Below, piece after piece: positions 111-32,630 of a stretch of 34,086 nucleotides of DNA. The notes under the pieces were generated by a model. The model ran no database searches. It was not told where the DNA came from and saw nothing but the letters and a program-made list of their open reading frames with translations. A program made the translations under genes and the position numbers. Source of the stretch: Gallionella sp. Its GTDB lineage: Bacteria > Pseudomonadota > Gammaproteobacteria > Burkholderiales > Gallionellaceae. Position 1 is the first letter of the stretch; every line of letters begins with the position of its first letter. The stretch spans positions 1 through 34,086 of the forward strand of contig JAJDNO010000034.1 of the NCBI GenBank assembly GCA_022340615.1, given 5' to 3'.

Positions 111-139
111 ATTATATCATCAAGCGCCTATTTCACTAA
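111..139 (-). promoter_or_regulatory. Probable promoter of the tRNA-Leu gene
   Basis: On the minus strand a perfect TATAAT (116-111) lies about 26 nt upstream of the mature tRNA 5' end. Seventeen bases further upstream is a weak -35 match, TTAGTG (139-134), which overlaps the acuI stop codon. The strong -10 and its distance from the tRNA support independent transcription. The -35 is poor, so this is inference. Confidence 0.5.
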
Positions 140-1137
140 CCTGGCGCTTTTATTTCGACCACCGAGCGCCCGCGCAGCTTGCCTTGCAGCATCTCAGGGA
201 ATACCTGTGGCAGTTCTGCGAAAGGAACGTTATGCGCAATCAGGGACAACTTTCCCGGATGCAAATCTGTTGCCAGACGCTGCCAGATCAGACTGCGTAG
301 CGGCATAGCGGTCGCGGCAGAATCGATGCCGATCAGGTGAACGCCGCGCAGGATGAAAGGCAGCACGTTGGTATTGAGCTCGATGCCGCCCGCATTGCCA
401 AAGCTCGCGATCGTACCGTTCTGCTGCATGGTACGCGTCAGCCAGCCCAGCGTCTTCCCGCCCACCGAATCCAGTGCACCGGCCCACAGGGATTTTTCCA
501 GCGGGCGCGTGCCCATGACAAGTTCCTGGCGCGACAGGATTTCCGCGGCGCCCAGAGATTTGAGGTACTCGTGCCCGGAATCTTTTCCGGTCAGCGCAAC
601 CACGTGATATCCCAGTTGTGCCAGCATCACGATGCCCAGGCTGGAAACGCCGCCGGTCGCGCCGGTCACGATCACCTTGCCATTCTCCGGTCGCAGTCCG
701 TTCTGTTCCATGCGATGTATCGCCAGCGCCGCGGTGAACCCGGCCGTACCCAGCACCATCGCGTCGAACAGTGTCAGTCCCTGCGGAAGCGGCACCACCC
801 AGTCGGCCGGGACGCGCACATAACCGGCATAGCCTCCGTCATGCGCAACACCCATGTCGTAACCGGTCACCAGCACTTGTTCGCCGGCCTTGAAGCGCGG
901 ATCGGACGAACTGGCCACCGTGCCCGACACGTCGATGCCGCCCACGCACGGAAAACGGCGTATCACCTTGCCCGCTCCGGTCGCGGCAAGCGCGTCCTTG
1001 TAATTCACGCTGGAATAGTGCGCCCGGATCACCACCTCGCCCGGATCGAGATCGTCCAGTGTCAGGTCGACGAAACGCCCGGCTGATTTGCCGTCCTGTT
1101 CGAAGATTCGGTATGCTGAAAATTTATCCATGGTCAT
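136..1137 (-). CDS. acuI: Acrylyl-CoA reductase / YhdH-type quinone oxidoreductase
   Basis: A 333-residue zinc-independent medium-chain dehydrogenase of the YhdH/AcuI family, cytosolic and NADPH-dependent. In characterised members it reduces acryloyl-CoA to propionyl-CoA, a detoxification step. Family marks are SSVNYKDALA (42-51), GIDVSG (67-72) and the nucleotide-binding loop TGATGGVSSLG (158-168). The length is normal for the family. The start at 1137 is supported by AGGAG six bases upstream; a second ATG two codons later is less well placed. It follows sucB by only 9 nt and is probably read from the sdh-suc operon, in a place where lpd is often found. The family call is firm. The exact substrate is not shown by the sequence, and a general quinone or enone reductase role remains possible. 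Confidence 0.88.
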   Translation of the reverse strand: MTMDKFSAYRIFEQDGKSAGRFVDLTLDDLDPGEVVIRAHYSSVNYKDALAATGAGKVIRRFPCVGGIDVSGTVASSSDPRFKAGEQVLVTGYDMGVAHDGGYAGYVRVPADWVVPLPQGLTLFDAMVLGTAGFTAALAIHRMEQNGLRPENGKVIVTGATGGVSSLGIVMLAQLGYHVVALTGKDSGHEYLKSLGAAEILSRQELVMGTRPLEKSLWAGALDSVGGKTLGWLTRTMQQNGTIASFGNAGGIELNTNVLPFILRGVHLIGIDSAATAMPLRSLIWQRLATDLHPGKLSLIAHNVPFAELPQVFPEMLQGKLRGRSVVEIKAPG

Positions 1138-1146
1138 CCGCCTCTC

Positions 1147-2313
1147 CTAAAGATCAAGCAGCACCCGGCCGGGAAATTCAAGCGCTTCCTTGATGGTGGC
1201 GAGGAACTGCACGGCTTCGCGCCCGTCGATGATGCGATGGTCATATGAAACGGCAAGATAGTTCATTGGCCGGATCACGATCTGGCCGTTTTCCACCACC
1301 GGTCTTTCCTTGGTTGCATGGATGCCGAGTATCGCGGCTTGCGGCGGATTGATGATCGGTGTCGACAGCATCGAGCCGAACACCCCACCATTGGAAACCG
1401 AAAAGGTGCCGCCGCTCAGTTCCTCCATCGTCAGCTTGCCGAGCTTGGCGCGCGCGCCGAAATCGGCGATCTGTTTTTCGATGTCGGAAAATGAAAGCTT
1501 GTCGGCGTCGCGGATGATGGGCACCACCAGACCGCGCTCGCTGCCGATAGCCATGCCTATATCGAAATATCCATGATAGATGATGTCGGTGCCGTCCACC
1601 GAGGCGTTGACGATCGGGAATTTTTGCAAAGCCAGCACTGCCGCCTTGACGAAGAACGATGAAAAACCAAGCTTGATGCCGTGCTTCTTCTCGAACGCAT
1701 CCTTGTAGCGCGCGCGCAGGTCCATCACAGGCTGCATGTTGACTTCGTTGAATGTGGTCAGGATCGCGGCATTCTGCTGCGATTGCAGCAGGCGCTCGGC
1801 GATGCGCTGGCGGATGCGCGTCATCGCGACGCGCTGTTCGGGACGGTTGCCGGACGGCACGATCGCCGGAGCGGCCTGCGGTACATTACCCGGAGTTTCC
1901 TCCTGGGCAACCTGCTGTATCGCATTCAGGACGTCTTCCTTGGTGACGCGCCCGCTGCGTCCGCTGCCGTGCAGGGTGCCCGCATCGATTTCGTGTTCCC
2001 GCGCCAGCTTGCGCACCGATGGTGGCGCAGCGGCAGCGGCGGCCCGGGATGCTGCCGGTTTGGCAGCAGTCACTGCCGTGTCGATCTGCGCAATCAGCTC
2101 CTCGCTGCCCACTTTCTCGCCATCGCCCTTGATGATCTTGCTCAGCACGCCGCTCTTGGTGGCGGGCAATTCGAGCACCACCTTGTCCGTTTCCACGTCG
2201 ATCAGGTTTTCACCCTCGGCGACCGCCTCGCCGACCTGCTTGTGCCAGTTCAGCAGTGTCGCTTCGGAAACGGATTCGGACAGCTGAGGTACTTTGACGT
2301 CAATGATGGCCAT
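1147..2313 (-). CDS. sucB: 2-Oxoglutarate dehydrogenase E2, dihydrolipoyl succinyltransferase
   Basis: The 388-residue E2 core of the 2-oxoglutarate dehydrogenase complex, which moves the succinyl group from E1 to CoA through a lipoyl arm. Domains in order: a lipoyl domain (1-75) with the modified lysine K44 in ETDKVV; an Ala-rich linker (about 79-97); an E3-binding domain (about 98-132, [11 protein letters not shown] and GRVTKEDVL); and the catalytic acyltransferase domain (about 160-388), with H359 and D363 in YDHRIIDG. The C-terminus RVLLDL is typical of SucB. The start ATG lies inside the end of sucA with a 14-nt overlap, which suggests coupled translation; its GGAG lies within the sucA reading frame. 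The E3 partner (lpd) is not in the window. Confidence 0.97.
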
Positions 2314-5176
2314 AGTGTAAAGCTCCAGGATTAGGTTTGTTGTCGAGGTCGTCGCGGAATGCCGCTTCGATCACCGCCTTCTGTTGTTCCTGATGCACCG
2401 CCAGATAGCCGGCGGCAGGCGCGGCAGACGATGGCCGCAGCGCGTAGTCTAGGTGCATGCCCTTGCGCATGTGGCGCAGCAGATAATGCTGGATGCGATG
2501 CCATGCGCCCTGGTTGCCAGGCGCTTCCTGGCACCAGACCAGTTCGGTTGCGTTCGGATAGGCGGCAATCTGCGCCGCAAAGTCATCATGCGGGAACGGG
2601 TAAAGCTGCTCGATGCGGACGATCGCCATATCCGCGATACTCCTGGTCCGGCGTGCGGCAAGCAATTCGTAATACACCTTGCCGCTGCACGCGATGATGC
2701 GGCGCACACCGGTTGCATCCAGCGCATCGACTTCGGCGATCACCGGCTGGAATTTTCCGTGAGTCAGCTCTTCAATCGGCGAAGCCGCCTCCTTGCTGCG
2801 CAGCAGGCTCTTGGGCGTAAACACGATCAGCGGCTTGCGCATCGGGCGCAGCATCTGGCGGCGCAACAGGTGGAACATCTGCGCCGGGGTGGAAGGAACG
2901 CAGACCTGGATGTTGTAGTCGGCGCACAGCTGCAAATAGCGCTCAATGCGCCCCGAGGAATGTTCCGCGCCCTGCCCTTCATAGCCATGCGGCAACAGCA
3001 TCACCAGACCGCACTTCCTGCCCCACTTCACTTCGCCTGACGCGATGAACTGGTCGATCACCACCTGCGCACCATTCGCAAAATCGCCGAACTGCGCTTC
3101 CCACAGCACGAGTGAAGAAGGTTCTGCTGTGGCATAACCATATTCAAATCCGAGCACCCCCTCTTCGGACAGCAGCGAGTCAATCACCACAAAATCGGCC
3201 TGGTCCGGCGTGAGATGCTGCAGGGGGGTAAGTACTCCATCGCCGAGTACCACATGCTTCTGGTCGTGCCATGCCGCATGACGGTGGAAGAATGTGCCGC
3301 GCCCGCTGTCCTGTCCGCTCAGTCGCACCGGATAGCCTTCGGTGAGCAGCGTCGCGTACGCCAGATTTTCCGCCATGCCCCAGTCCAGGGACATTTCCCC
3401 GTTCGCCATCGCGGCACGATCATCGACGATCTTCTGCACGCGGGATTGCAGTATGAAGCCTTCCGGAACCGTGGTCAGCACTTTCGCAAGTTCGCGCAAG
3501 CGCTGCAGCGGCACCGCGGTATTCACCGGCATATCCCAGCGCACGTCGTTGCTGAACAATGACCAGTCCACCCCATGCCTGGATTTGCTGCCTTCCAGAG
3601 CGGGTTGAATCGAATTGCGCCCTTCATCCATCGCCTTTCGGTAGGTCGCAACCATCTCATCCGCTTCGCCGACCTGGATGACGCCCTGTTCCTGCAGACG
3701 CTGCGCATACAGCGCGCGCGTGCCGGGATGCTTGCGAATGAAGCTGTACATGAATGGTTGCGTGACCAATGGTTCGTCCTGCTCGTTGTGTCCCAGCTTT
3801 CGGAAACAGACCAGATCGATCACCACGTCCTTTTTGAATTGCATCCGGAAATCCAGCGCAATCTCGGTGATCAGCAATACCGCATCCGGGTCGTCGGCAT
3901 TCACATGGAAAATCGGCGCGTCGATCATTTTCGCCACATCGCTGCAGTAGGTGCTGGAGCGGACGTCGCGCGGGTCGGACGCGGTAAAGCCAATCTGGTT
4001 GTTGACGATGATATGCAACGTACCGCCGGTGCCGTAGCCGCGCGTCTGCGACATTGCCAGCGTTTCCATCACCACGCCCTGTCCCGCAAAGGCAGCGTCG
4101 CCGTGGATGAGTATGGACATCACTTTTGAACCATCGTGATCCTTGCGCCTGTGCTGGCGCGCGCGCACCGAACCTTCCACCACCGGATCGACGATCTCCA
4201 GGTGGGAGGGGTTGAACGCCACTACAACATGCAGTTCGCCGCCCGGCGTCGCGACGTCCGCGGAAAAACCCTGATGATATTTGACGTCGCCGGAAGGCAG
4301 GTGTTCGGCATGAATGCCCTCGAATTCCGCAAACAGCATGCCGGGCTGCTTGCCCAGGATATTCACCAGCACGTTCAGGCGCCCGCGGTGTGCCATGCCG
4401 ATCACCGCCTCCTGCACGCCTTGCGCGCCGGCACGCTGCAACAAATGGTCGAGCGTCGAAATCAGCGTTTCACCGCCCTCGAGGGAGAAGCGCTTCTGTC
4501 CGACGAACTTGGTATGCAGGTAACGTTCCAGCGTTTCTGCCGCGGTGATGCGCTCAAGGATGCGGCGCCGCATTGCATGATCATAGCCGGGATCGCCGCG
4601 CGCGCTCTCCAGGCGGTTCTGTATCCAGCGTTTCACCGCAACATCGCTGATATACATGTATTCCGCGCCGATACTGCCGCAGTAGGTCTGTCGCAGCAAC
4701 TTGAGGATTTCACGCAAGGTCATGCGCGCGCCGCCCACCAGCGATCCGGTGTCGAAGGTGGCATCCATGTCGGACTCGACCAGACCGTAGTGCGCCGGAT
4801 CCAGCTCGGAGACCAGCGGTTTGGCGAAACGTTTCAGCGGATCGAGATCCGCGACGCGCAGGCCGAGGAAACGATGCGCATTGATCAACTGCAGAACGTA
4901 GACCTGTTTGCGCTCCAACTCGGCATCCGATGCGCCCACATTACTGATGGCCAGTAGCGGCAAGGACGAAAAAGCATGGCGGATGCGGCTGTGCAGTTCT
5001 TCATGCGCCCCGCTGGCCAGCGGCGGCAGTGCATCAAAATAACCACGCCACTCTTCCGGCACGCTTTTCGGGTCGACCAGATAATTCTCGTACAGTTCCT
5101 CGACAAAGGGCGCATTCGCTCCAAACAGCAGCGAACTGTTCTGCATCCATTGCATGAAATTGACTGGTTTGTTCAA
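2300..5176 (-). CDS. sucA: 2-Oxoglutarate dehydrogenase E1 component
   Basis: A 958-residue thiamine-diphosphate E1 that decarboxylates 2-oxoglutarate in the TCA cycle. Typical OdhA motifs are the N-terminal E2-docking segment [17 protein letters not shown] (14-30), HRGRLNVL (263-270), [15 protein letters not shown] (321-335), the ThDP/Mg region [11 protein letters not shown] (357-367) with VNNQIGFT (391-398), and [12 protein letters not shown] in the transketolase-like C-terminal half. The start is a TTG at 5176 whose last two bases join the gltA stop (TTGA). GGAG lies five bases before it. The next in-frame ATG, seven codons on, has no ribosome-binding site, so TTG is preferred. The length is normal for the family, with no sign of damage. 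Confidence 0.97.
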
Positions 5177-6462
5177 CGCTTCTCCACAGGAACGTAATCG
5201 CGCTTGGCGGAACCCCGGTAGAGCTGGCGCGGGCGGCCTATCTTCTGTTCAGCATCCCCGACCATCTCGTTCCATTGCGACACCCAGCCTATGGTGCGCG
5301 CCAGCGCAAAGATCACCGTAAACATATTTTTAGGGATACCCAGTGCGCGCAGCACGATGCCGGAATAAAAATCGACATTCGGATACAGCTTGCGTTCGAT
5401 GAAATACGGATCGTTCAATGCGACGCGCTCAAGCTCCATCGCCAGTTCGAACAGTTTGTCGTTTTCCAGCTTGAGTTCCTTGAGCACCTCATAGCAGGTC
5501 TGGCGCATCACGCTGGCGCGCGGGTCCATGTTCTTGTAGACCCGGTGGCCGAAGCCCATCAGGCGGTATTTCTTGTCCTTCACGCCCTGCACATATTCCT
5601 TCACGCGCGAGATATCACCGATCTCTTCCAGCATGTTCAGCGCGGCTTCGTTCGCCCCGCCGTGTGCCGGGCCCCACAGCGCGGCGATGCCTGAAGCCAC
5701 GCAGGCAAAAGGATTGGCGCCACTGGAACCGGCCAGACGCACCGTTGCGGTGGAAGCATTCTGCTCATGGTCCGCGTGCAGTATGAAGATGCGTTCAAGC
5801 GCACGCACCAGAACCGGATTCTGAACATAGTCCTCCGAAGGAACGCCGAACATCATGTACATGAAGTTTTCCACGTAACTGTAACGATTCTTCGGATACA
5901 TGAAAGGTTCCCCGGTGTTGTACTTGTAGGCCATCGCGGCGATGGTCGGAACCTTGGCGATCATGCGCATTGCAGATATTTCGCGATGCTCCGGGTTATT
6001 GATGTCCAGGGAATCGTGGTAGAACGCCGACAGCGCCCCGACCACACCGACCATCACCGCCATCGGGTGGGCATCGCGGCGGAACCCGTTGTAGAAGCGG
6101 GTCAACTGGTCGTGCACCATGGTGTGTTTGGTGACCTTTTGCATGAAAGCCGCTTTCTGTTCGGCGTTCGGCAACTCCCCGAACTTCAGCAGATAGCAGA
6201 CCTCGAGGAAATCCGATTTCTCGGCAAGCTGTTCGATCGGATAGCCGCGGTAATACAGCAAGCCGGCATCGCCGTCGATGAAGGTAATGGACGAAGTGCA
6301 GCTGGCCGTGGCCGTGAATGACGGATCGTATGTGAATACACCCAGCTTGCCGATGCCGCGCACGTCCACCACATCCGGCCCCAGCACGCCGGACAGTATG
6401 GGCAATTCGATACTGCGCCCGTCGTCCAGGGTCAGTGTTGCGATACGTTGCTTGTTCTCCAT
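5173..6462 (-). CDS. gltA: Citrate synthase (type II, hexameric)
   Basis: A 429-residue citrate synthase that condenses acetyl-CoA with oxaloacetate. The catalytic triad is visible: H267 in [10 protein letters not shown]306 in FGHRVYK and D364 in NVDFYSG. The roughly 40-residue N-terminal beta domain ([15 protein letters not shown]) is that of the NADH-sensitive Gram-negative type. The start has GGAGG seven bases upstream. It sits 22 nt after sdhE and overlaps the sucA start by 4 nt, within the same TCA operon. It is supplied with acetyl-CoA by acs, found elsewhere in this window. Confidence 0.98.
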
Positions 6463-6484
6463 CGATATTCCTCCAGTATTAGCT

Positions 6485-6718
6485 TCAGCATGACCTGATC
6501 AATTCCAGCAACGCCTGATGGTTTTCCTGCGTTGCTTCTTTCCCGCCTGCAATCATATCCCATAGCGGATTGTCGGGCGTATCCAGCAGATCCTCGAACG
6601 CCTGCTGTCCGTTCTCGTCGAGCTCTGCATAATGCCTGTCGATGAAGCGGCCCAGCACGATGTCCAGTTCCAGCATTCCGCGCCTGCAACGCCAGCGTAT
6701 CCGTTCGAGATTTTTCAT
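6485..6718 (-). CDS. sdhE: Succinate dehydrogenase flavinylation factor SdhE
   Basis: A 77-residue protein of the SdhE/YgfY/SDH5 family, which helps attach FAD covalently to SdhA. The family signature RGxxE is present as RRGMLELD (12-19), followed by the usual acidic helix region ([13 protein letters not shown]) and the segment [14 protein letters not shown]. The same frame stays open upstream across sdhB, but the ATG at 6718 forms an ATGA overlap with the sdhB stop, so it is taken as the start. Its place between sdhB and gltA is the usual betaproteobacterial one. Confidence 0.95.
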
Positions 6719-7422
6719 ACCATGCGCTTGACCATCATGTCCTTGATTTTCCCGATTGCCTCGGTCGGGTTCAGTTCCTTGGGGCACACATCCACACAAT
6801 TCATGATGGTATGGCAGCGGAACAGGCGATATGGATCTTCCAGGTCGTCGAGGCGCTCGCTGGTGGCCTGATCGCGGGTATCGGCAACAAAACGGTAAGC
6901 CTGCAGCAATCCGGCCGGGCCGACGAACTTGTCCGGATTCCACCAGAATGACGGGCATGACGTCGTGCAGCATCCGCACAGAATGCACTCATACAGCCCG
7001 TTCAGATGCGCGCGCTGCTCCGGCGATTGCAGCCGCTCGGTTTCCGGCGGCGGCTCGTTGTTGATCAGGTAGGGCTTGACCGAATGGTATTGCTTGAAGA
7101 ACTGCGTCATGTCCACGATCAGGTCGCGGATCACCGGCAGTCCCGGCAGCGGCCGCAGTTCGACCGGCTCCTTGAGCGTATGCAACGGCGTGATGCAGGC
7201 CAGCCCGTTGCGCCCGTTGATGTTCATCGCATCCGATCCGCACACCCCCTCGCGGCAGGACTTGCGCAGCGACAGGCTGTCATCCTGCTGTTTGATCATC
7301 AGCAGCGCGTCGAGCAGCATTTTCCCCTGGGTGCTGTCATCGTGCCTGATTTCCAGTTCATAGTCCTGCATATACGGCGCAGTGTCCGTGTCAGGGTTGT
7401 AGCGGTAGATACGAAACTTCAT
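6715..7422 (-). CDS. sdhB: Succinate dehydrogenase iron-sulfur subunit
   Basis: A 235-residue iron-sulfur subunit of complex II that passes electrons from SdhA to the membrane quinone site. The [2Fe-2S] ligands are C56, C61, D64 and C76; the Asp in third place matches the E. coli enzyme. The [4Fe-4S] set is C146, C149, C152 and C156 (CILCGCCTTSCP). The [3Fe-4S] set is C203, C209 and C213 (CHTIMNCVDVCPKELNP). The start ATG has AGGAG six bases upstream. It is the fourth gene of sdhCDAB, 109 nt after sdhA with a hairpin in the gap. Confidence 0.98.
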   Translation of the reverse strand: MKFRIYRYNPDTDTAPYMQDYELEIRHDDSTQGKMLLDALLMIKQQDDSLSLRKSCREGVCGSDAMNINGRNGLACITPLHTLKEPVELRPLPGLPVIRDLIVDMTQFFKQYHSVKPYLINNEPPPETERLQSPEQRAHLNGLYECILCGCCTTSCPSFWWNPDKFVGPAGLLQAYRFVADTRDQATSERLDDLEDPYRLFRCHTIMNCVDVCPKELNPTEAIGKIKDMMVKRMV

Positions 7423-7459
7423 TGCCTGCTCCTACATATAACCGGCCGCCTTGCCGCCG

Positions 7460-7488
7460 ATCCGGTTTGCCAACGGCCGAAACCGGAT
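7460..7488 (-). promoter_or_regulatory. Hairpin in the sdhA-sdhB gap
   Basis: A perfect 9-bp inverted repeat, ATCCGGTTT (7460-7468) and AAACCGGAT (7480-7488), with an 11-nt loop lies between the sdhA stop and the sdhB ribosome-binding site. No T-run follows it, so it is unlikely to be a full terminator. It may be an mRNA stability or processing element inside the operon. Confidence 0.4.
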
Positions 7489-7531
7489 ATGGATAACTGT
7501 AATGCCCTCCAGTCGGAAGACCGGTTGTATA

Positions 7532-9295
7532 TCAATAAACCCGCGCCTTGAGCGGAAACGATTCGACCGACAACGGTTTCAGCCGCACCGGCTTGTAATC
7601 CAGCCGCCGTCCCTCGCGAAAATACAGGCTGTGCTTGAGCCAGCTCACGTCATCGCGCTGCTGGAAATCATCGCGCGCATGGGCGCCTCGACTTTCCTGT
7701 CGCGCATGTGCCGCGATCATTGTTGCCTGTGCGACCTCGATCAGATTGTCCAGCTCCAGCGCCTCGATGCGCGCGGTGTTGAACACCCTGCTCTTGTCCT
7801 GTATTTCGGTATTCCCGACCCGTTCGGCGACCTGTTTGATCTGCTCCACGCCCTCCGCCAGCAAATCCGGGAAGCGGAACACCCCGCAATGTTTCTGCAT
7901 TGTCCTGCGCATTGCCTCGCCGACATCCGGCACGCGCTCGCCGTTCTTCTGGTTTTCCAGGCGCGCCAGGCGCGCCAGCGGCCGGTCGGCGGCATCAGCC
8001 GGCAACGGCTTGGGATGCGGGTTGTTGTTCAGATCCTCGATGATCTGCCTGCCGGCCTCGCGTCCGAACACCATCAGGTCGAGCAGAGAATTGCAGCCCA
8101 GGCGGTTTGCGCCATGCACCGACACGCAGGCGCATTCGCCGGCTGCATAGAGGCCGTGCACGGCCTCGTCGGGACCTGTCTTGTAGGGCGCCACGACCTG
8201 GCCGTGAAAATTGGTCGGAATCCCGCCCATCATGTAGTGCGCGGTGGGCACGACCGGTATCGGCGCCCGTGCCGGATCGACGTGCGCAAATTTCAGCGAT
8301 ATCTCGCGGATGCCGGGCAGGCGCTGCCGGATCACGTCATCGCCGAGATGGTCCAGCTTCAGCATCACGTGATCGCCATGCTTTCCGCATCCTCGTCCTT
8401 CGTTGATCTCGATCGTCATCGCGCGCGCGACCACGTCGCGGCTGGCCAGATCCTTCGCGTTGGGCGCGTACTTTTCCATGAAGCGCTCGCCGTTCTTGTT
8501 GACCAGATAACCGCCCTCGCCGCGCACCCCTTCGGTGATCAGAACGCCAGCGCCATAAACCCCGGTCGGATGAAACTGGAAGAACTCCATGTCCTCCAGC
8601 GGAATCCCGGCGCGCGCTACCATGCCCAGCCCGTCGCCGGTGTTGATGTACGCGTTGGTGCTCGATTGGAAAATGCGGCCCGCGCCGCCTGTCGCGAGCA
8701 GCGTCGCGCGCGCCTGGAAGATCATCGTCTCGCCGGTTTCGATTTCCAGCGCGGTCACGCCAAGCACGTCGCCGTCCTCGTCGCGTATCAGGTCCAGCGC
8801 CATCCATTCGATGAAGAAATGCGTGTTGGCTTTCACGTTCTGCTGGTAAAGCGTATGCAGCATCGCATGCCCGGTACGGTCGGCCGCCGCGCAGGCGCGG
8901 TCGACCGGTGTCTTGCCGTATTCCTGCATGTGGCCGCCGAACGGTCGCTGGTAGATCTTGCCAGCGTCGGTGCGGTCGAACGGCATGCCGAAATGTTCCA
9001 GCTCATAGACCACTTCCGGCGCGGCGCGGCACATGAACTCGATCGCATCCTGGTCGCCAAGATAATCCGAGCCCTTGACCGTGTCATACATGTGCCAGTG
9101 CCAGTTGTCTTCCTTGATATTGCCGAGCGAGGCGGCGATGCCGCCCTGCGCCGCGACGGTATGGGAACGGGTCGGAAACACCTTGGACAGCACCGCGACC
9201 TTCAGCCCGGCATGCGCCAGCTGCAAAGCCGCGCGCATACCGGAACCGCCCGCGCCGACCACCACCACATCGAAAGTACGTTTAGCGACTGCCAT
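7532..9295 (-). CDS. sdhA: Succinate dehydrogenase flavoprotein subunit
   Basis: The 587-residue catalytic flavoprotein of complex II, which oxidises succinate to fumarate. It has the FAD dinucleotide fold [10 protein letters not shown] (10-19), the FAD-attachment histidine H45 in [15 protein letters not shown] in the substrate site, RGEGG and [12 protein letters not shown] near the C-terminal half of the FAD domain, and a C-terminal helical domain ending LKARVY. An in-frame TTG at 9340 would add 15 residues, but these come from the repeat-like spacer and lack a ribosome-binding site. The ATG at 9295 gives the standard length and begins MAVAKRTFD, so it is chosen. An AGAAGG lies somewhat far (11 nt) upstream. 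Confidence 0.97.
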
Positions 9296-9312
9296 TGTTA
9301 ATCGAACCTTCT

Positions 9313-9434
9313 GAAATTTGTTTTTCGGGATGAAGCGCAAGGAGCCGCGCAGCGAATGACGAAGACATATCGAGCCTGATAGGCGAGGAATGAGCGAGCA
9401 CGCGACACCGCGATTCGCCCGATAAACAGATTTT
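9313..9434. repeat. Possible MITE-like element inside the sdh operon
   Basis: The sdhD-sdhA gap (about 141 bp) is bounded by a 17-nt imperfect inverted repeat. The left end is 9313-9329 (GAAATTTGTTTTTCGGG); the right end is 9418-9434 and, when reversed, reads AAAATCTGTTTATCGGG. Fourteen of 17 positions match. The interior is rich in GAGCGA/GCGAATGA-like motifs and has no open frame of note. The neighbouring sdh genes otherwise overlap or nearly touch, so the spacer looks inserted. A repeated or mobile origin is inferred and needs copies elsewhere in the genome to be proven. Confidence 0.4.
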
Positions 9435-9436
9435 CA

Positions 9437-9784
9437 TTACATTCCCCACAGAATTTCAACCGACCATATTGAATAAATTATCAAGGCGAGGATCACCAGC
9501 ACATGAATCACCAATCTGATGGCGGCGGAATTGACGTAATCCATCACGATGTCGCGCACGCCGACCCAGGCGTGGTAAAACAGGGCGAGCAGGAACAGCA
9601 GCGTGAAGGTGCGCACCACCAGGCTGGAGAACAACGCAGTCCAGACGTCATAACCCAGAACGGGCTGCATCAGCAGGTAGCCTGTCATTGCGAATATGTA
9701 CAGCACCATCAGCACCGCCGTGATGCGCTGAATCAGCCAGTCGCGCAGCCCGTAGTGCGCCCCGACGACGACACGGCTCACCAT
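9437..9784 (-). CDS. sdhD: Succinate dehydrogenase membrane anchor subunit SdhD
   Basis: A 115-residue inner-membrane anchor of complex II with three hydrophobic segments (about 19-41, 53-76 and 89-113). H71 in FYHAWVGVRDI fits the haem b ligand, and the DY pair at 82-83 fits the quinone-site tyrosine. The start overlaps the end of sdhC by 7 nt (ATGGTGA), which suggests translational coupling. It carries no enzymatic activity of its own and works with SdhC to hold SdhAB and form the ubiquinone site. Confidence 0.95.
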   Translation of the reverse strand: MVSRVVVGAHYGLRDWLIQRITAVLMVLYIFAMTGYLLMQPVLGYDVWTALFSSLVVRTFTLLFLLALFYHAWVGVRDIVMDYVNSAAIRLVIHVLVILALIIYSIWSVEILWGM

Positions 9785-10152
9785 AATTTCATTCCCAGGA
9801 AAATTGTAAGTGCCAGACTCGCCGCGACCACCAGCCTGCTGCTGTTGCGCGCCCTGGCAAGGTCTCGTACCAGATGGAAATCAATCGCGAGATAACGCAG
9901 TCCGGCACAAAGGTGATGCAGGAATGCCCACAGCAAACCGAGCAGCAGCAATTTTGCCAGCGGGTACGAAAGCACGGACATCAACTCGGTATAGGTTTCT
10001 ATCGAGGTAAGGCTGTACTGCAGGATCAGCAGCAGCGCCGGCAATGCAAGGAACAGCAACAACCCGCTGACGCGATGGAGTATGGATACGATACCGGGGA
10101 GCGGCAATTTGATCTTGTGCAGCGCGAGGTGTTTGGGACGTTTTTTATTCAT
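9778..10152 (-). CDS. sdhC: Succinate dehydrogenase cytochrome b556 subunit SdhC
   Basis: A 124-residue cytochrome b subunit of complex II. The signature SILHRVSG (23-30) contributes to the quinone site, and the FLHHLCAGLRYLAIDFH stretch (77-93) carries the haem-binding histidine region. Three transmembrane helices are visible (about 28-48, 65-90 and 105-124). The start at 10152 (MNKKRPKHLALHKIKLP) matches the family N-terminus. An upstream in-frame ATG would add 13 unrelated residues. The ribosome-binding site is weak (GAG). This is the first gene of the TCA operon. Confidence 0.93.
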   Translation of the reverse strand: MNKKRPKHLALHKIKLPLPGIVSILHRVSGLLLFLALPALLLILQYSLTSIETYTELMSVLSYPLAKLLLLGLLWAFLHHLCAGLRYLAIDFHLVRDLARARNSSRLVVAASLALTIFLGMKLW

Positions 10153-10274
10153 TGCTGATCTCGAACATGCCTGGAATCCAATAACCCACATGCTACACCT
10201 TTGCGTGGCGGGAGAAAATCAATATAGCCAGCGCACCGCTATTTTAACAGTTGGCGGGAAATGCAATTACGCGT

Positions 10275-13880: not shown

Positions 13881-16800
13881 CTACGCTGCATCGGAGCGGC
13901 GCAGATGCAATCGGACCAGGCAGCGGTCTATCCACTGCGCGGTCAGCTTTTCCTGCACCGAATTCTGCCGCAGCCTGGCTTTCAGTCCGGGGAAATCGAC
14001 TCGGTCCAGCGGCTGGTCCTGGTTGAAGCAGGAAAACACATGGCTGGTCTTGCCGGTATCCGGATCGATATGGGTTTGCAGACATTGCGCGCAGATCTCC
14101 TTCATCATGCACTGCATCGGTGAGTTGATCGATCCGATCGCGAAATGATGGGGCTTCAGGTAAGGCTGCAGCACCGCATGGCGCGCGGCGGCCACCGCCG
14201 CCATCATGCCGTCCGACCCGATCGCGATGATGCGGTCGGCATCGGCACACGGAATCTGCTGGTCCCCGAGCGCGCCGCTTGCGTAGGCCGTCATCGCATC
14301 GACAATATTTCCGGCAAAACTGCGATCCTGGGGGCGTGAAGGCGCAAAACCGGGCTTCTCGTCGCAGCACCAGACCACCACATCGGCGGCATTCTCGATC
14401 TCGGCAACCTTGTAACGGTCAATGGCTTTTTTGTATCCGGCGAAATAAAGCACCCTGGAGCCGGCCGCGCGCAATGCCTGGCCGATCGAAAACAACACCG
14501 CATTCCCCAGTCCGCCACCCACCAGCAGCACCGTTTCATCCACCGGTATCTCGGTGGGCGTGCCGGTCGGCCCCATCAGCACCACCGGTTCGCCGGGCTT
14601 GAGCATCGCGCACAGGTCGGCCGAGCCGCCCATCTCCAGCACGATGGTCGAAATCAACCCGCGCTGCGGATCGACCCAGGCACCGGTCAAGGCGAGCCCT
14701 TCCATCGCGAGGCGGGTCGAGTCGATCTCCAGCGCATTGGCCTCGTAATTCTGCAGGCGGTAAAACTGTCCCGGCCTGAAATTTCGCGCAGCCAGCGGCG
14801 CGTGGATCACGACTTCGACGATATTCGGCGTCAGTCGAATGACTTCGTGGACCGTCGCTCGCAACTGATGATTGATCTGCGCAAGAAATTCCGCATCCGA
14901 TGACTCTGATGCAGGTTGCACCCGCTGCAGCACTGCACTGACCAGCGGATAGCCCTGTTTGGCGCCGCCCATTGCCTTGACCACATTGCCGAAATAGGAC
15001 GGATGCAGATCACCGAAAAAGCTGATGAATCGGCCATCGGGTTGTTTCGCTAACAGCACCTGCGCCATCTTCGGCTTGGACGTCGCCGGCTCGGGACGCA
15101 CCGGCGATCCATCCGCGTCGCATGCCTGGAAATAGCGCCCGTCCAGTTTGAAATGATCCGGGTCTTCGCGCGCCAGCACGGTGTTCGGCTGGGTACCGGC
15201 GGCAACCAACACGGTGCGCGCGGCGATTTCAATCTCTGAACCCGCGCTCCAGTTTCCCTCCTCATCGCGCTGCTGCAACGACAACCCGATGGCGCGTACC
15301 GCGCCGAACTCGTCGACCTCGATGCGCGTCGGGCTCAGTCCCTCGGCGAAACTGATTCCTTCCTCCAGCGCCTTTTCGACTTCCTCATGGTTCAGCGTGT
15401 AGGAGGGACTGTCGATCAGACGCTTGCGGTAGGCGATCGTGACGCCGCCCCAGCTTTGCAGCAATTCGACGATGCGGGGCTCACGTCCTTCTGCGGCGGC
15501 TTTGCTGCGCTCCGAATCGATCGCCAGCGCATGGCCGAGAAACTCATCGGCGATCTGGCACTCTTCGGCCATCCAGCGCCGGCGCACCGCCTCCTCGCCC
15601 TTTTCGGCTACCAGAATCTTGTAGCGATGCAGGAATTTTGCAACCTGCTCCGGATAATAGGCCAGCGACTCGGTAGCTGTGTCGATTGCGGTCAGACCGC
15701 CGCCGATCACCACGACAGGCAGGCGTATCTGCAGATTCGCGATCGAATTCTGCTTGGCGGCGCCGGTCAATTGCAGCGCCATCAGGAAATCCGACGCAGT
15801 GCGCACGCCGCGCGCCAGTCCGTTGGGGATATCCAGCACGGTCGGCCGGCCGGCGCCGTTGGCCAGCACGATGTGGTCGAAACCGCTGGAGAAAGCCGAG
15901 TCCACGGTGAGCGTTCCGCCGAAACGCACGCCGCCGAACAGCGCGAACTGGCTGCGCCGCTCCAGCACCAGGCGGATCAGTTTCAGGAAATTCTTGTCCC
16001 AGCGCACCGTGATGCCGTATTCGGCAACACCGCCGAATCCCGCCAGCACGCGGTCGTCGAGCGCTTCGTACAATTCGCCGATTTCACGGACCGGCGCAAA
16101 TTCGACACGCTCGCCGCTGGCTGCCACGCCGCCGATATGCGGCGGCAGCGGTTCGATTTTCAGGCCGTCGATGCCGACCACGGTATGTCCGTCATTGATC
16201 AGATGATGGGCAAGCGTGAAACCGGCCGGTCCCATTCCGGCAATCAGCACGCGTCGGCCGGAGGGCGCTTTCGGATAAGGTCTTTCCAGATGCAGCGGAT
16301 TCCAGCGCGTCAGCAGGCTGTAGATTTCGAATCCCCACGGCAATTCCAGAACATCTTTCAGCGTGCGCGTTTCCGCCTGCGGAATATCGACCGGCTGCTG
16401 CTTCTGGTAGATGCACGACTTCATGCAATCGTTGCAAATGCGATGTCCGGTCGCCGCGACCATCGGATTGTCGACCACGACGATCGCCAGCGCGCCCAGC
16501 GCATGACCCTCTGTCTTGACCTTATGGAACTCGGATATCTTTTCCTCAAGCGGACAACCGGCAAGCTTGACGCCGAAAATATTTTTCCTGAACGCGGCAA
16601 CACCACCGTCTGCGGGAGGCTTTTCCCTGAGTCCGTGGGAGCAGGAATCCTTGCCCTGCTCGTGGCACCAGATGCAGTAATTCGCCTGGTCGAGCGCGCC
16701 GGCCAGGTCGGTCCCGGCATCGGTCAGCGCAAAACCCCGGCGGCGGCGCAATTCATGGCCTGCGCCGAGGCGATAGGCGTGGATGCCATCCAGGTTCACC

Positions 16801-17435
16801 GTCGCCAGCGGAACCAGTTTGTCAAAATCCAGTTTGGCCGGAACCTTGAACAGTATGCCGCTGCGGTGGCGCTGTCGTCCGGCGGCCGTTTGCACTGCCC
16901 AGGCCGCATAACGCAGGGCGAGCTGCAATTCAGCGGCATGGACCGTCTCATCTTCCAGCCACACACCAACAAGTCTGGCATAGGCGAGTTCGCTGAATGG
17001 CGCGCCGATGTAAGCTTCCAGTTCGGCTTCAAGAGCGGGGCCGTCTATGGTTGCCGCTTCTTCGGCTTTCACCTTGGTCATCGCGCGGCGCTGGACGAAC
17101 AGGCGTTTGCAGCCGTACAGCGGCGCCAGCTCATGATGGCGCTCGGCCAATGCCCGCATTTGCGTCTCGATGCCGAACAGGGTTGCCAGGAAATCTTCAA
17201 GGTGGGGCGCAAGCGCGATCAGCAGCTCCGATTGCGCCTTGCCTGACAGTCCGCCTGGCTTCTGCCGGGCGGCTTCGAGTTGCGCGCGCAGATCCGGATC
17301 GCTTTCGCCCAGTGATTCGAGAAAAGCCGCATCGATGCGGATCAGCCCAGCGCGATCGTAAAGGTCGCCGAATTTGAACCCGTAAGCGAGGTCCAGATTC
17401 TGCTGACGGGCGGTGTCATTTTGAATGGTCGGCAT
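13881..17435 (-). CDS. Fused GltD/NfnB-like and NfnA/PyrK-like flavin oxidoreductase
   Basis: A very large (1184 aa) soluble redox protein. Residues 1-250 are an alpha-helical region I cannot assign. Cysteines follow at C254, C257, C265, C294, C334, C337 and C341, a likely Fe-S region. A GltD-like FAD/NAD(P) module (about 394-835) has Rossmann loops AGMGPAG (399-405) and VIGGGLTAID (576-585), plus AGTQPN (746-751). A ferredoxin-reductase/PyrK-like module (about 855-1150) has RPGQFYRL (887-894), VGGGLGNAV (972-980) and a 2Fe-2S set C1109, C1115, C1118 and C1136. The module order suggests an NfnB-NfnA fusion, linked in known enzymes to electron transfer or bifurcation between NADH, NADPH and ferredoxin. 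ATG at 17435 (GGAAG nine bases before) is preferred; a GTG at 17474 would add 13 residues. Substrates are not determined. Confidence 0.82.
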   Translation of the reverse strand: MPTIQNDTARQQNLDLAYGFKFGDLYDRAGLIRIDAAFLESLGESDPDLRAQLEAARQKPGGLSGKAQSELLIALAPHLEDFLATLFGIETQMRALAERHHELAPLYGCKRLFVQRRAMTKVKAEEAATIDGPALEAELEAYIGAPFSELAYARLVGVWLEDETVHAAELQLALRYAAWAVQTAAGRQRHRSGILFKVPAKLDFDKLVPLATVNLDGIHAYRLGAGHELRRRRGFALTDAGTDLAGALDQANYCIWCHEQGKDSCSHGLREKPPADGGVAAFRKNIFGVKLAGCPLEEKISEFHKVKTEGHALGALAIVVVDNPMVAATGHRICNDCMKSCIYQKQQPVDIPQAETRTLKDVLELPWGFEIYSLLTRWNPLHLERPYPKAPSGRRVLIAGMGPAGFTLAHHLINDGHTVVGIDGLKIEPLPPHIGGVAASGERVEFAPVREIGELYEALDDRVLAGFGGVAEYGITVRWDKNFLKLIRLVLERRSQFALFGGVRFGGTLTVDSAFSSGFDHIVLANGAGRPTVLDIPNGLARGVRTASDFLMALQLTGAAKQNSIANLQIRLPVVVIGGGLTAIDTATESLAYYPEQVAKFLHRYKILVAEKGEEAVRRRWMAEECQIADEFLGHALAIDSERSKAAAEGREPRIVELLQSWGGVTIAYRKRLIDSPSYTLNHEEVEKALEEGISFAEGLSPTRIEVDEFGAVRAIGLSLQQRDEEGNWSAGSEIEIAARTVLVAAGTQPNTVLAREDPDHFKLDGRYFQACDADGSPVRPEPATSKPKMAQVLLAKQPDGRFISFFGDLHPSYFGNVVKAMGGAKQGYPLVSAVLQRVQPASESSDAEFLAQINHQLRATVHEVIRLTPNIVEVVIHAPLAARNFRPGQFYRLQNYEANALEIDSTRLAMEGLALTGAWVDPQRGLISTIVLEMGGSADLCAMLKPGEPVVLMGPTGTPTEIPVDETVLLVGGGLGNAVLFSIGQALRAAGSRVLYFAGYKKAIDRYKVAEIENAADVVVWCCDEKPGFAPSRPQDRSFAGNIVDAMTAYASGALGDQQIPCADADRIIAIGSDGMMAAVAAARHAVLQPYLKPHHFAIGSINSPMQCMMKEICAQCLQTHIDPDTGKTSHVFSCFNQDQPLDRVDFPGLKARLRQNSVQEKLTAQWIDRCLVRLHLRRSDAA

Positions 17436-17594: not shown

Positions 17595-19343
17595 TCACTT
17601 CTTCGATCCGCGCTTGTAGAGTCCGGAAGTGTTGCCGCCCTCTTTTTTGGAGTTATACATCGCCTGATCGGCATTCTGCATCAAATCGTCGGCGTTCTTT
17701 CCATCCTCGGGGTAGACACTGACCCCGATGCTGGAGTGGACGGTTAGTTCATGGCCTTCGATCTGCATCGCGCCCTGGAAAAGATCATGCAGCTTCCTCA
17801 CCACGACCATGGCCTGCTGGGGATCATTGATCGAATCGAGCAGGATGACGAACTCGTCGCCGCCAAGGCGCGCCACCGTATCCACTTCACGCACCGCCGC
17901 CCTCAGCAGCTTTGCAAAGTTGACCAGCACACTGTCCCCGGCCGCATGGCCCAGCGTGTCATTGATCTCCTTGAAGCGATCCAGATCGATAAACAGCACG
18001 GCGAGGTGCTTGCCGCTGCGCCGCGAACTGACGATCGCATGTTCCAGCCGGTCGAAAAACATCCGGCGATTGGGCAGCCCGGTCAGCGTGTCATGCCTGG
18101 CCTGATGATCGAGCGCCTTGCGGTGTTCGTCCAGTTCGGACAAGTGCGCGACGATTTGCTTCTGCATATCGTGAAAACTGCGTGACAGCAGGCCGAGTTC
18201 ATCGTTGCGTGCCAGCGGCTTATTGCTGACGACGTGCTCTGTCGAGAATTTCCTGATCGCGTCGACCACGGTATTCAGCGGGCCGGTGACGATGCGAGAA
18301 ACCAGCGCGGAAAGGATCAGCGCAAGCAGGCTGAATGCCAGAATGATCTGGAAAGTGTCCCAGCCCAGCCTCGAGGTTTCCTGCGTGATGCTAGCGATCG
18401 GCTCGGACAATCCGAGAATCACAAAGCGCTTGTCTATCGTGTCGCCAAACGGCAAGCGTATGAAGGCGGCAACATGCCCATCCTGTTTCCGCGATTCATC
18501 GTAGACATGCGTCACGACATTCATCTTCTTGCCGTGAATCAGCAACAGCACCTGCTTGAAGGAATCCTGGATCAGGATGCGCTTGCCGCGGTCAAAACCA
18601 AAGGTCTTGCTCGGATCGGGATGTATCAGGAAGTCACCAGACTGGTTGCTGAGGTATAGATTGTATGAACTCGGCAAATTGCTCTTCAACAGCCTGGCCA
18701 GCCCGTTCAGATCAATATTGATTGCAATCAAACCAAGTCTTCTGCCGCTTTGTGAGAATACCGGCGTCGCAACCGTCACCGTCGGTTTGTCACGGCCCGA
18801 GTGTGCGCCCCTTTCATGGTTTATCCTGATATCCGACAGATAGATATCTCCCCGGGCCAATCTCAGCGTGCCGGCAACATAGGGATAGCGCCCGCGTTTC
18901 TTCAGATCGCTGCCCTGCACCCGGGTCAGTCGCTTGCCGTTGCGGTCGACGCGCACCAGTTCCTGGCCGCCATGGTCGATGCCTATCAGGCGGATCTGGA
19001 AATATTCCGGGTGTGCGGACAGCATTGCAGCGAAGGTGTCGGCCAGTATCTGTTTGTCCTGTTCGGCAGTCTTCGCATCCGGAGAAAGAAAAACATTACG
19101 CGACAGCGGCAGGGCTGCCAGCAATTGCGAATCCTCCGCAATCACGTCAATGATGATCTTCATGTTCCGGCCAACCACCTGAGTCGCGGTCAGCAGGTCG
19201 CGTTCCGCCGCACTGGTCAGCATATTCCGGCTGGACGTGTAAAAGTAATAGCCGGTCAGGATGGTCGCCAGGATACCGAATGCGGCAAGCAGGGAGCCGA
19301 GCTTGAATCCGATATTCGGTTTCATGTAATCAGAGAGCTTCAT
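17595..19343 (-). CDS. Membrane diguanylate cyclase with periplasmic Cache sensor
   Basis: A 582-residue signalling protein making cyclic di-GMP. Transmembrane helix 1 (about 14-35), a periplasmic dCache-like sensor (about 40-325), transmembrane helix 2 (about 331-350), a HAMP linker (350-405) and a GGDEF domain (about 415-578) follow in order. The catalytic GGDEF (494-498) is intact. An RxxD inhibitory site (REVD, 485-488) lies exactly five residues before it, so product inhibition is expected. DTLTGLPNRR and DLDRFKEIND are conserved. The start is uncertain: ATG 19343 has no clear ribosome-binding site, and ATG 19325 is an alternative. The frame is open to a TTG at 19433. The sensed ligand is unknown. 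It precedes the fused oxidoreductase by about 160 nt. Confidence 0.92.
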   Translation of the reverse strand: MKLSDYMKPNIGFKLGSLLAAFGILATILTGYYFYTSSRNMLTSAAERDLLTATQVVGRNMKIIIDVIAEDSQLLAALPLSRNVFLSPDAKTAEQDKQILADTFAAMLSAHPEYFQIRLIGIDHGGQELVRVDRNGKRLTRVQGSDLKKRGRYPYVAGTLRLARGDIYLSDIRINHERGAHSGRDKPTVTVATPVFSQSGRRLGLIAINIDLNGLARLLKSNLPSSYNLYLSNQSGDFLIHPDPSKTFGFDRGKRILIQDSFKQVLLLIHGKKMNVVTHVYDESRKQDGHVAAFIRLPFGDTIDKRFVILGLSEPIASITQETSRLGWDTFQIILAFSLLALILSALVSRIVTGPLNTVVDAIRKFSTEHVVSNKPLARNDELGLLSRSFHDMQKQIVAHLSELDEHRKALDHQARHDTLTGLPNRRMFFDRLEHAIVSSRRSGKHLAVLFIDLDRFKEINDTLGHAAGDSVLVNFAKLLRAAVREVDTVARLGGDEFVILLDSINDPQQAMVVVRKLHDLFQGAMQIEGHELTVHSSIGVSVYPEDGKNADDLMQNADQAMYNSKKEGGNTSGLYKRGSKK

Positions 19344-30400: not shown

Positions 30401-32521
30401 TCATCTCGCTTCCTCGCGCTGGCGCAGCTTTCGCCACAGCCAGAAGGCAAACATCAAGACTGCAGTCCCAGACAGCCATAGCGGCCAGCGCACCGGCTGA
30501 TTCCATTTGCGGCGCAACCGATCGCGCAGCTGCGGGTCGACGCGCCAGTATTTGATCTTGTTGTTTGCCATTACGTTCGCCTTGACGTTGCTCAGCCAGC
30601 TTTGCTGCAGCACATAATCCTTGGGATGGTAGCCCCACAACCACGGCGAGTCGCGGCGCAAAATCTCAATCATGCGATCAATGATGGCCTGGCGCGCAGG
30701 ACTGTTCTCCATGTTCTTCATCTGCTCGAACAATCTGTCATATTCCGGATTGCTGTAGTTCGCCGCATTTTCGCCCCCCTTCCCGACCTTGGCCTGAGCG
30801 CTGGTCAGCAGGAACAGAAAATTTTCCGGGTCAGGATAGTCTGCATTCCAGCCCCAGTAGAACATCTGCGTATCACCTTTGCGGATCTTGTCCTGGAATC
30901 GGTTGTAGTCGGTGCTGCGCGCGACCAGCTGCACATTGATCTTGTCGAACTGTTTGCGCAGCCAGTCGATTCGCGCCTTGCCCCCCGCCCCGCCTGCCGT
31001 GGTATCCAGATAGATCACCAGAGGCTGTCCGGTTTTGGCATCAATCCCGTTTGGATATCCCGCTTCGGCCAGCAGCTGCCTGGCCGTCGCGATGGACTTG
31101 CGCCGCGGCGCGCCATTCACCCAGTCATATACATAGTGGTTGATGCCTGCCTCGCCCGAACGGTAGCCGAAGATGCCCGGCGGAATCGGCGATTGCGCCG
31201 GGATACCGCGGCCATTCGCAAAAATCGAGATGAATTCCTCGAAGTCCACCGCAATAGAAATCGCCTGCCGCAGCTTGCGCGACCGCTCGCTGTTTCCGCC
31301 CACGACGGGATCGAGCCAGTTGAATCCGGTATACATGGTCGAAGTCGCGACAGCCGTGGTCAGCTTGATGCCCTGCGCCTTCATCGCATCCGATACCGTC
31401 GCTTCACCGCCGACGCTCACCTGCACCGCCTGGTCGAAGCTGTCCGAACTGATCCCCGACGCGTCGTAATATCCCTGCAGGAACTTGTTCCAGTACGGTA
31501 TGGTTTCCTTTTCCAGCGTAAACACGGCCTTGTCGATCAGCGGCAGGCGTTTTCCCGCGTCCTTGAGCAAGCCCGCCGCCGCATCGCCTGGTTCGCCTTC
31601 ACTCGGATAGGTCTCGCTGTCATAGTACGGATTGCGCGTCAGCACCATGCGCTGGTTGGGGTTGTTCTCGGACAGGTAATACGGCCCGCTGCCGACCGGC
31701 CACCAGTCCAGGGTCAGGTTGCGCTCGCGCATGCCAGGCTGTGCGTAGAAGCGTTCGGCTTCAGGCGGCATAGGCGCGAAAAACGGCATCGCCAGCCAGT
31801 ACTCGAACTGGGGATATTTTCCGTATAACTCGATGCGGTAGGTATGTTCGTCAATCACCTTGACGCCGCGCAGCGGATATTTGTTCAGGTCGAGATACGC
31901 GTCGGGATGCTGCTTCACCGCCTGCTGCAGCGTTTTGGCATATTCCTTGAGTCCGACGATATGATCGCTCATCACCCCGAAAATCGGCACCTGCAATTGC
32001 GGATCAGCCAATCGCTTGATCTGGTAAACATAATCCGCCGCGGTAACAACGCGTGTCCCGCTGTGCGGAAAATCGCCGATTGCATGGATACCGCGCAAAT
32101 CAACCGGCTTGAGATGATCGTATTCCGGCACAAATGCCGGGTGGGGCTGATAGCGCATGCCGGGCTTGATATGAATCTCGTACTCGCTGTAGGCAATCCT
32201 GCTTGCAGGCGCATTGTCCGGCAGCAGCCGGTGCTGCCTGTCCAGATAGCGCACTGTCGGCATCGCGCTGGCCGCCAGAGGCACCAGCTGGTAAGGCCGT
32301 TTCAGATAATGGTATTGCAGCGGCGGCGCGTATATCTGCGCAAGGAAGACGTACTCGTTCTCGCTGTATGCCTGCGCCGGATCGAGATGTTTTGGCCGTT
32401 CGGTGAACGCGCTATAGAAAATCGACTTGCCCTGGTCCGATGCCGGATAGGGATCGTTCCACAACCCCCCACTGCAGGCGGAAAGCAGCATAACCAGCAG
32501 GCAAACCGGCAATATTTTCAT
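30401..32521 (-). CDS. ABC transporter substrate-binding lipoprotein with C-terminal membrane helix
   Basis: A 706-residue family 5 (peptide/nickel type) solute-binding protein. A lipoprotein signal ends in the lipobox LSAC with C16 as the anchor. The core includes RPKHLDPAQAYSENEY near the start, YYLSENNPNQRMVLTRNPYYD and GWNADYPDPENFLF, typical of SBP_bac_5. Unusually, a transmembrane segment lies near the C-terminus (about 678-694, LWLSGTAVLMFAFWLWR), followed by basic residues. The start at 32521 is set by the signal peptide; the frame is open to 32593. It is presumably the binding protein of the downstream permease/ATPase operon. Confidence 0.92.
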   Translation of the reverse strand: MKILPVCLLVMLLSACSGGLWNDPYPASDQGKSIFYSAFTERPKHLDPAQAYSENEYVFLAQIYAPPLQYHYLKRPYQLVPLAASAMPTVRYLDRQHRLLPDNAPASRIAYSEYEIHIKPGMRYQPHPAFVPEYDHLKPVDLRGIHAIGDFPHSGTRVVTAADYVYQIKRLADPQLQVPIFGVMSDHIVGLKEYAKTLQQAVKQHPDAYLDLNKYPLRGVKVIDEHTYRIELYGKYPQFEYWLAMPFFAPMPPEAERFYAQPGMRERNLTLDWWPVGSGPYYLSENNPNQRMVLTRNPYYDSETYPSEGEPGDAAAGLLKDAGKRLPLIDKAVFTLEKETIPYWNKFLQGYYDASGISSDSFDQAVQVSVGGEATVSDAMKAQGIKLTTAVATSTMYTGFNWLDPVVGGNSERSRKLRQAISIAVDFEEFISIFANGRGIPAQSPIPPGIFGYRSGEAGINHYVYDWVNGAPRRKSIATARQLLAEAGYPNGIDAKTGQPLVIYLDTTAGGAGGKARIDWLRKQFDKINVQLVARSTDYNRFQDKIRKGDTQMFYWGWNADYPDPENFLFLLTSAQAKVGKGGENAANYSNPEYDRLFEQMKNMENSPARQAIIDRMIEILRRDSPWLWGYHPKDYVLQQSWLSNVKANVMANNKIKYWRVDPQLRDRLRRKWNQPVRWPLWLSGTAVLMFAFWLWRKLRQREEAR

Positions 32522-32630
32522 GGCATCCAGTTTAGCGGAATCGCGACGCCGCGTCATGGGCAAGGTTGACATCACAGGTGCATTGAACAACACTGCACGC
32601 GAATATTTTCAGCACTTTCGGCAAATCACC

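What the first reader, a model, noticed from the sequence alone, without database searches (positions are those of the whole stretch)
13881..17435. Single-chain fusion of an NfnB/GltD-like and an NfnA/PyrK-like flavoprotein
Two modules that are separate subunits in NfnAB or SudAB are joined in one 1184-residue chain, in the order GltD-like then FNR/PyrK-like. Known relatives carry out electron bifurcation or transhydrogenation between NADH, NADPH and ferredoxin. Both Rossmann loops, the FNR-like FAD and NAD motifs and a C-terminal 2Fe-2S cysteine set (C1109/C1115/C1118/C1136) are visible. A fused form next to a c-di-GMP cyclase and an SPFH/NfeD pair in a betaproteobacterium could be an undescribed electron-transfer enzyme.
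Basis: partly seen in the sequence, partly recalled or inferred. Interest (0 to 1): 0.7.

Follow-up and report, generated by a model that had tools for sequence, protein, structure and literature searches.

The report
One-chain Nfn-like ferredoxin-feeding enzyme
A very large single protein that joins two flavin-and-iron-sulfur modules and probably passes electrons from NADPH to ferredoxin; sequence databases already hold its relatives, but its gene neighbours point to a testable job, such as feeding sulfite reductase.

Summary
Window 13881-17435(-) encodes one intact 1184-residue chain (1197 from an upstream GTG): an unmatched helical N-terminal domain, an NfnB/GltD-like half with ligands for two [4Fe-4S] clusters, and an NfnA/PyrK-like half with a four-Cys [2Fe-2S] site. 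All 11 cluster cysteines are invariant in 211 of 211 aligned rows. It belongs to a very large family, closest to NCBIfam PRK06567 but below its cut-off. Fused Nfn-like proteins of this module order are described in print but uncharacterised, so it is a new variant of a known kind. What is added here is function by context: the gene recurs beside assimilatory sulfite reductase/cysG/cysH/cysD/cysN(C), beside 7Fe ferredoxin fdxA and beside pntAB, and is anticorrelated with the ordinary ferredoxin-NADP reductase Fpr (present in 11 of 57 against 98 of 138 genomes). Best reading: an Nfn-type NADPH:ferredoxin oxidoreductase supplying low-potential ferredoxin, perhaps by bifurcation with NAD+. Against it: this genome has no assimilatory sulfite reductase (DsrAB only), the Nfn-specific Asp ligand of [2Fe-2S] is absent, and the sulfur adjacency does not differ significantly from that of Fpr itself. 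No activity is known.

The parts
13881..17435 (-). gene of the one-chain Nfn-like flavoprotein, 1184 aa from ATG (GTG start at 17474 gives 1197 aa)
   Evidence: open frame; full-length relatives, 64-93% identical in the rows listed; 1184 aa in 28 of 120
16689..17420 (-). N-terminal helical domain, residues 19-262 (PF27156 in database relatives); no PDB fold match found
   Evidence: helical core mostly pLDDT 91-98, one block 82; 0 Foldseek matches at E<=0.001
16275..16691 (-). two-[4Fe-4S] domain, residues 262-400: C267,C270,C278,C307 / C347,C350,C354 + E368
   Evidence: all invariant; E368 aligns with the ER glutamate of the Pyrococcus large subunit
14880..16274 (-). b-FAD and NADP(H) Rossmann domains, residues 401-865 (GMGPAG 413-418, R491, GGGLT 591-595, YR 682-683)
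15459..15665 (-). helical insertion in the NADP(H) domain, residues about 604-672
   Evidence: helices 593-662 between the GGGLT helix and the next strand; the Pyrococcus alignment breaks at 604 and resumes at 676
14541..14879 (-). FNR-like barrel for a-FAD, residues about 866-978 (PGQFYR, E925..T930)
14154..14540 (-). NAD(P)-type domain of the NfnA-like half, residues about 979-1107 (GGGLGNA)
   Evidence: loop kept in clade 1, degenerate in clade 2
13884..14153 (-). C-terminal [2Fe-2S] domain, residues 1108-1197: C1122-x5-C1128-x2-C1131-x17-C1149
   Evidence: the four Cys invariant in 211 of 211 rows

Best explanation
A single-chain, Nfn-type NADPH:ferredoxin oxidoreductase. NADPH reduces the b-FAD. 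Electrons leave through two [4Fe-4S] clusters to a ferredoxin (a 7Fe FdxA-type one in several genomes). A second branch leads through the four-Cys [2Fe-2S] cluster and the a-FAD to NAD+, which in the bifurcating version makes ferredoxin reduction favourable. PntAB, where present, would keep NADPH high by proton-motive force. The reduced ferredoxin serves low-potential reductases, in several lineages the siroheme sulfite reductase, and the enzyme tends to occur where Fpr is missing. Shown: architecture, conserved ligand sets, fold match, recurrent neighbours, Fpr anticorrelation. Inferred: cofactor occupancy, substrates, direction, bifurcation.
Confidence: 0.5

Rival explanations
1. Non-bifurcating reductase: NADPH electrons pass to ferredoxin, or straight to sulfite reductase, without NAD+; the NfnA-like half has another acceptor or a structural role.
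For: Four-Cys [2Fe-2S] instead of Asp-Cys3, and a degenerate NAD loop in clade 2; adjacent cysI/cysG/cysH genes; Pyrococcus NfnII shows NAD-independent activity (PMC6405883, passages).
Against: Clade 1 keeps a GGGLGNA loop and the NfnA-like fold; the arginine and both [4Fe-4S] ligand sets are kept.
Confidence: 0.22
2. It runs in the anaerobes' direction: NADH plus reduced ferredoxin make two NADPH.
For: This is the reaction given for NfnAB (PMC6405883, passages); NADPH-consuming neighbours would profit; clade 2 lacks PntB in 5 of 5 genomes.
Against: Clade 1 genomes usually have PntAB for NADPH (53 of 57); no ferredoxin-reducing enzyme stood out among the recurrent neighbours identified.
Confidence: 0.13
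3. A glutamate synthase small subunit (GltD) or another amidotransferase partner, as database names suggest.
Against: Far below the GltD cut-offs (47.1 against 447.7; 44.0 against 482.95 bits); fused NfnA-like half; no gltB among the recurrent neighbours identified.
Confidence: 0.03

Closest known systems
[quoted passage not shown]
   Same: NfnB fold with 7 Cys + Glu in cluster-ligand positions, b-FAD domain, arginine at the N5 position, NADP(H) domain; NfnA fold with a C-terminal [2Fe-2S] site
   Different: one chain, NfnB-like half first, extra N-terminal domain, 28 residues between the third and fourth Cys of the first cluster motif, helical insertion in the NADP(H) domain, Cys instead of Asp at [2Fe-2S]
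NCBIfam PRK06567 / NF005128
   Same: best family match (E 4.8e-235, 782.9 bits), matched from residue 29 on
   Different: below the curated cut-off (1072); the model is 1031 positions long
Fused Nfn 'Pattern C' of Liang 2019; NCBIfam PRK12779
   Same: NfnB-like half first, NfnA-like half second
   Different: PRK12779 is 944 positions and scores only 91.1 against a cut-off of 1519; that it equals Pattern C is my guess, and whether the review's Pattern C includes the present family could not be checked
Fpr2 beside the cys genes of Corynebacterium glutamicum
   Same: a ferredoxin-NADP+ reductase gene beside and co-regulated with a ferredoxin-sulfite reductase cluster (fpr2 cysIXHDNYZ; PMC2580772, passages)
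   Different: relation to the present protein was not tested

Membership tests
NfnAB | NfnB-type fold with b-FAD and NADP(H) domains | tested here: met
NfnAB | ligands for two [4Fe-4S] clusters (motifs RCx2Cx4Cx3CPV and GRVCPQExQCx3C...ER) | tested here: met
   7 invariant Cys and E368 in the same order; spacing differs (Cx2Cx7Cx28CP and Cx2Cx3C), so the literal motifs are not matched
NfnAB | arginine at N5 of b-FAD | tested here: met
   R491 invariant, aligned with Pyrococcus residue 201; by sequence alignment only
NfnAB | NfnA-type FNR fold | tested here: met
NfnAB | a-FAD strand ERxPxT | tested here: inconclusive
   EGLALT in clade 1: Glu and Thr kept, Arg and Pro not
NfnAB | [2Fe-2S] with Asp and three Cys (DGTGMCGxCRx10CV) | tested here: not met
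   four Cys, C-x5-C-x2-C-x17-C; Cys invariant in 211 of 211 rows
NfnAB | two arginines for the NADP phosphate | tested here: inconclusive
   R683 invariant; position 684 is mostly Lys
NfnAB | electron-bifurcating activity | not testable with these tools
   needs enzyme assays
NCBIfam PRK06567 | score at or above 1072 bits | tested here: not met
   782.9 bits; 0 of 299 phylum genomes over the cut-off
PRK12779 (fused, GltD half first) | score at or above 1519 bits | tested here: not met
   91.1 bits
GltD (glutamate synthase small subunit) | score over TIGR01317 or TIGR01318 cut-off | tested here: not met
   47.1 of 447.7 and 44.0 of 482.95 bits
CysJ (sulfite reductase flavoprotein) | match to TIGR01931 | tested here: not met
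   not among the 23 families matched at E<=0.1

The most novel reading that the evidence does not exclude
A proton-motive-force-to-ferredoxin module of aerobes: PntAB raises NADPH, and this one-chain enzyme bifurcates NADPH electrons (to NAD+ and to low-potential 7Fe ferredoxin FdxA), replacing Fpr and supplying assimilatory sulfite reductase and other reductases.
Probability: 0.28. Interest if true: 0.82.

Novelty: new variant of a known kind. Interest (0 to 1): 0.58.

Why it matters
CysJ, the textbook electron donor of sulfite reductase, was found in only 17 of 200 genomes of this order (sulfite reductase itself was not counted there), and aerobic lithotrophs need low-potential electrons with no fermentative source (general knowledge). 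If this enzyme is a donor, a very common 'FAD-dependent oxidoreductase' gains a job, and electron bifurcation would extend widely into bacteria known to me as aerobes (Nitrosomonas, Azospirillum, Acidithiobacillus); a 2019 review named a single aerobe with Nfn (PMC6405883, passages). One deletion and one assay would test it.

Tried and rejected
GltD/glutamate synthase: rejected on family scores, fused half and neighbours, not on fold, which is tied. SPFH/NfeD link: not recurrent. c-di-GMP link: GGDEF or EAL genes are adjacent in 8 of 95 loci and L136; left open, no control. Autotrophy: RuBisCO shows no association in clade 1 (27 of 57 against 55 of 138, p 0.34), though 5 of 5 clade-2 genomes have it. 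CysJ: no association (7 of 57 against 10 of 138, p 0.27). Natural fusions: the long frames in L168 and L169 look, by inspection of their letters, like chance extensions upstream of the gene. Stand-alone N-terminal domain: in 120 genomes each match lies in a frame of 1063 aa or more (40 of 120 genomes); short database hits (816 proteins, best 120 seen) look like fragments, a number of them labelled partial. Fold of the N-terminal domain: no PDB match at E<=0.001 in Foldseek, which does not show a new fold. Fpr in the same cys slot: 2 of 20 alphaproteobacterial Fpr loci (19 genomes of the 26 positive). Paper searches: searches gave no hits; others (16 hits; 1; 6; 5; 1) gave listings with starts of abstracts; I read passages of PMC6405883, PMC4013037 and PMC2580772 only. 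None named this family, as far as these views went. RNA families at gathering score and sigma-70-type promoters near the gene: none; four terminator-like sites, fewer than in shuffles.

Limits: the Fpr test used one E. coli query at E<=1e-25; other ferredoxin reductases were not surveyed. Genomes are related, so p-values are hints, softened by genus and family collapse. 198 of 200 genomes had a family label; the other 2 were counted as negatives at genome level only. The five clade-2 genomes were left out of the clade-1 tests. The 145 loci include some overlapping stretches of the same gene and many with short flanks. The 23 alphaproteobacterial loci are 23 of 38 positive genomes; one (L170) has only 145 bases upstream. 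The chance rate assumes 7 sulfate-assimilation genes per 3 Mb. A neutral control set of loci was not run. One fdxA hit on the other strand (L053) and weak hits in L020, L080 and L097 were not counted.

Full report
What is there. Pfam sees only Pyr_redox_2 (residues 408-777) and a sub-threshold Fer4_20. NCBIfam gives PRK06567 at E 4.8e-235, 782.9 bits, below its cut-off of 1072, with weak matches to other fused or single Nfn/GltD/PyrK models. The closest solved structures by sequence are Pyrococcus and Thermotoga Nfn subunits.

The N-terminal 19-262 region was folded alone: helical core mostly pLDDT 91-98, mean 87.4, pTM 0.67. Foldseek finds no PDB match at E<=0.001. Database proteins that match only this part carry Pfam PF27156; no call gives its name. 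In 120 genomes of the order every match to it lies in a long frame (40 of 120 genomes).

Family and spread. A second clade, 45-49% identical, includes Acidithiobacillus, Acidiferrobacter, Nitrosococcus and Halorhodospira entries; the two clades separate with full support, and the window groups with L002 and the Gallionella acididurans record L003. Of the six genomes of the window's family in the order set only the window's own has it.

Neighbours. In Nitrosomonadaceae the order is a siroheme sulfite/nitrite-reductase-like gene, cysH, cysD, a cysN-like gene, this gene, then pntAA, pntAB, pntB; in L031 the reductase is nearest to NirA models but below their cut-offs. Pnt genes within 0.9 kb downstream occur in 16 of 145 loci, in two tree groups, Nitrosomonadaceae and L025/L040/L060; some forks between the groups are weakly supported, and L028 was not in the tree. 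In the alphaproteobacterial set sulfate-assimilation genes lie within 3 kb in 7 of 23 loci: L132 (cysI, a siroheme-synthase-like gene, cysD, cysNC, then this gene), L165, L166, L174, L176, L177 and L179; they come from seven different families by the labels. The rough chance rate is 1.4% per locus; against Fpr loci, 2 of 20, the difference has p 0.14. One further locus of the window's order (L114) and L052 have a sulfite-reductase-like gene just upstream. The 7Fe ferredoxin gene fdxA lies immediately upstream in 5 of 145 loci (L041, L054, L120, L122, L125) and 3.6-4.0 kb upstream in 7 more (L007, L014, L017, L042, L129, L130, L131), in a cluster of GntR regulator, AprA-like flavoprotein, AprB-like ferredoxin, HEAT protein, fdxA and an SsuA-like ABC transporter; the last three loci belong to clade 2. 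The same cluster beside both clades suggests a functional tie (inference). Genes for c-di-GMP turnover sit beside the gene in 8 of 95 loci and L136; they are common genes and I made no control.

Co-occurrence. In the 200-genome order set, E. coli-type Fpr is found in 11 of 57 clade-1-positive genomes and 98 of 138 negatives (p 4e-11), 8 of 27 against 56 of 79 by genus majority (p 2e-4) and 2 of 15 against 22 of 36 by family majority (p 0.002). Within the six families of mixed presence there is no clear contrast. The alphaproteobacterial set repeats the direction, 1 of 38 against 25 of 124 (p 0.0099). PntB is enriched, 53 of 57 against 94 of 138 (p 1.9e-4), but absent in 5 of 5 clade-2 genomes. 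CysJ and RuBisCO show no association in clade 1 and serve as rough controls.

Mechanism. The simplest account is a ferredoxin-NADP(H) oxidoreductase that stands in for Fpr. Nfn anatomy suggests that NAD+ takes the high-potential electron, so that ferredoxin can be driven below the NADPH potential; this is inferred. That 7Fe ferredoxins have very low potentials, which would favour bifurcation, is from memory. A precedent for a ferredoxin-NADP reductase tied to sulfite reductase is fpr2 cysIXHDNYZ of Corynebacterium (PMC2580772, passages).

Against. The window's own genome lacks Fpr and CysJ, but its only NIR_SIR genes are dsrA and dsrB, so there the consumer must be something else. Close relatives without this gene also lack Fpr. 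G353 and G395 hold CysJ as well. Most loci of this gene have no telling neighbour.

Verdict. Observation confirmed; architecture of a known kind but a distinct, uncharacterised variant; function by context is new here as far as could show. Interest 0.58.

Noticed in passing
L007 70-7946; also L014, L017, L042, L129, L130, L131: Cluster GntR/UTRA - AprA-like flavoprotein (PRK08275) - AprB-like ferredoxin - HEAT repeat protein - FdxA - SsuA-like ABC transporter, upstream of both clades of the fused enzyme; its substrate is unknown to me.
   Followed up: partly
window 17595-19343; L003, L027, L039, L043, L046, L086, L087, L136: GGDEF or EAL (c-di-GMP) genes next to the fused enzyme in 8 of 95 loci and L136; possibly chance, as such genes are common.
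   Followed up: partly
L095 (G114) and P0121-P0124: A divergent lineage (about 40% identical to the window, branch length 1.31) within the clade-2 side of the tree.
   Followed up: no
clade-2 proteins P0125-P0240, region equivalent to residues 985-998: The NAD-type loop GGGLGNA is AGrWGAA in clade 2, suggesting a changed or lost NAD(H) site.
   Followed up: partly
G000:C46 4627-6491 (L201): The window's genome has dsrA and dsrB, fitting a sulfur-cycling relative of Gallionella.
   Followed up: partly
G000:C66 and G000:C30: Two PntB genes in the window's genome, the second a partial match at the contig end.
   Followed up: no
window 136-10191: TCA genes on the minus strand: sdh cytochrome b and sdhA, citrate synthase, 2-oxoglutarate dehydrogenase E1 and E2, then an acrylyl-CoA reductase-like gene.
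   Followed up: no
window 30401-32593 and 32799-33689: Two minus-strand frames of 730 and 296 aa with no NCBIfam match at E<=1e-20.
   Followed up: no
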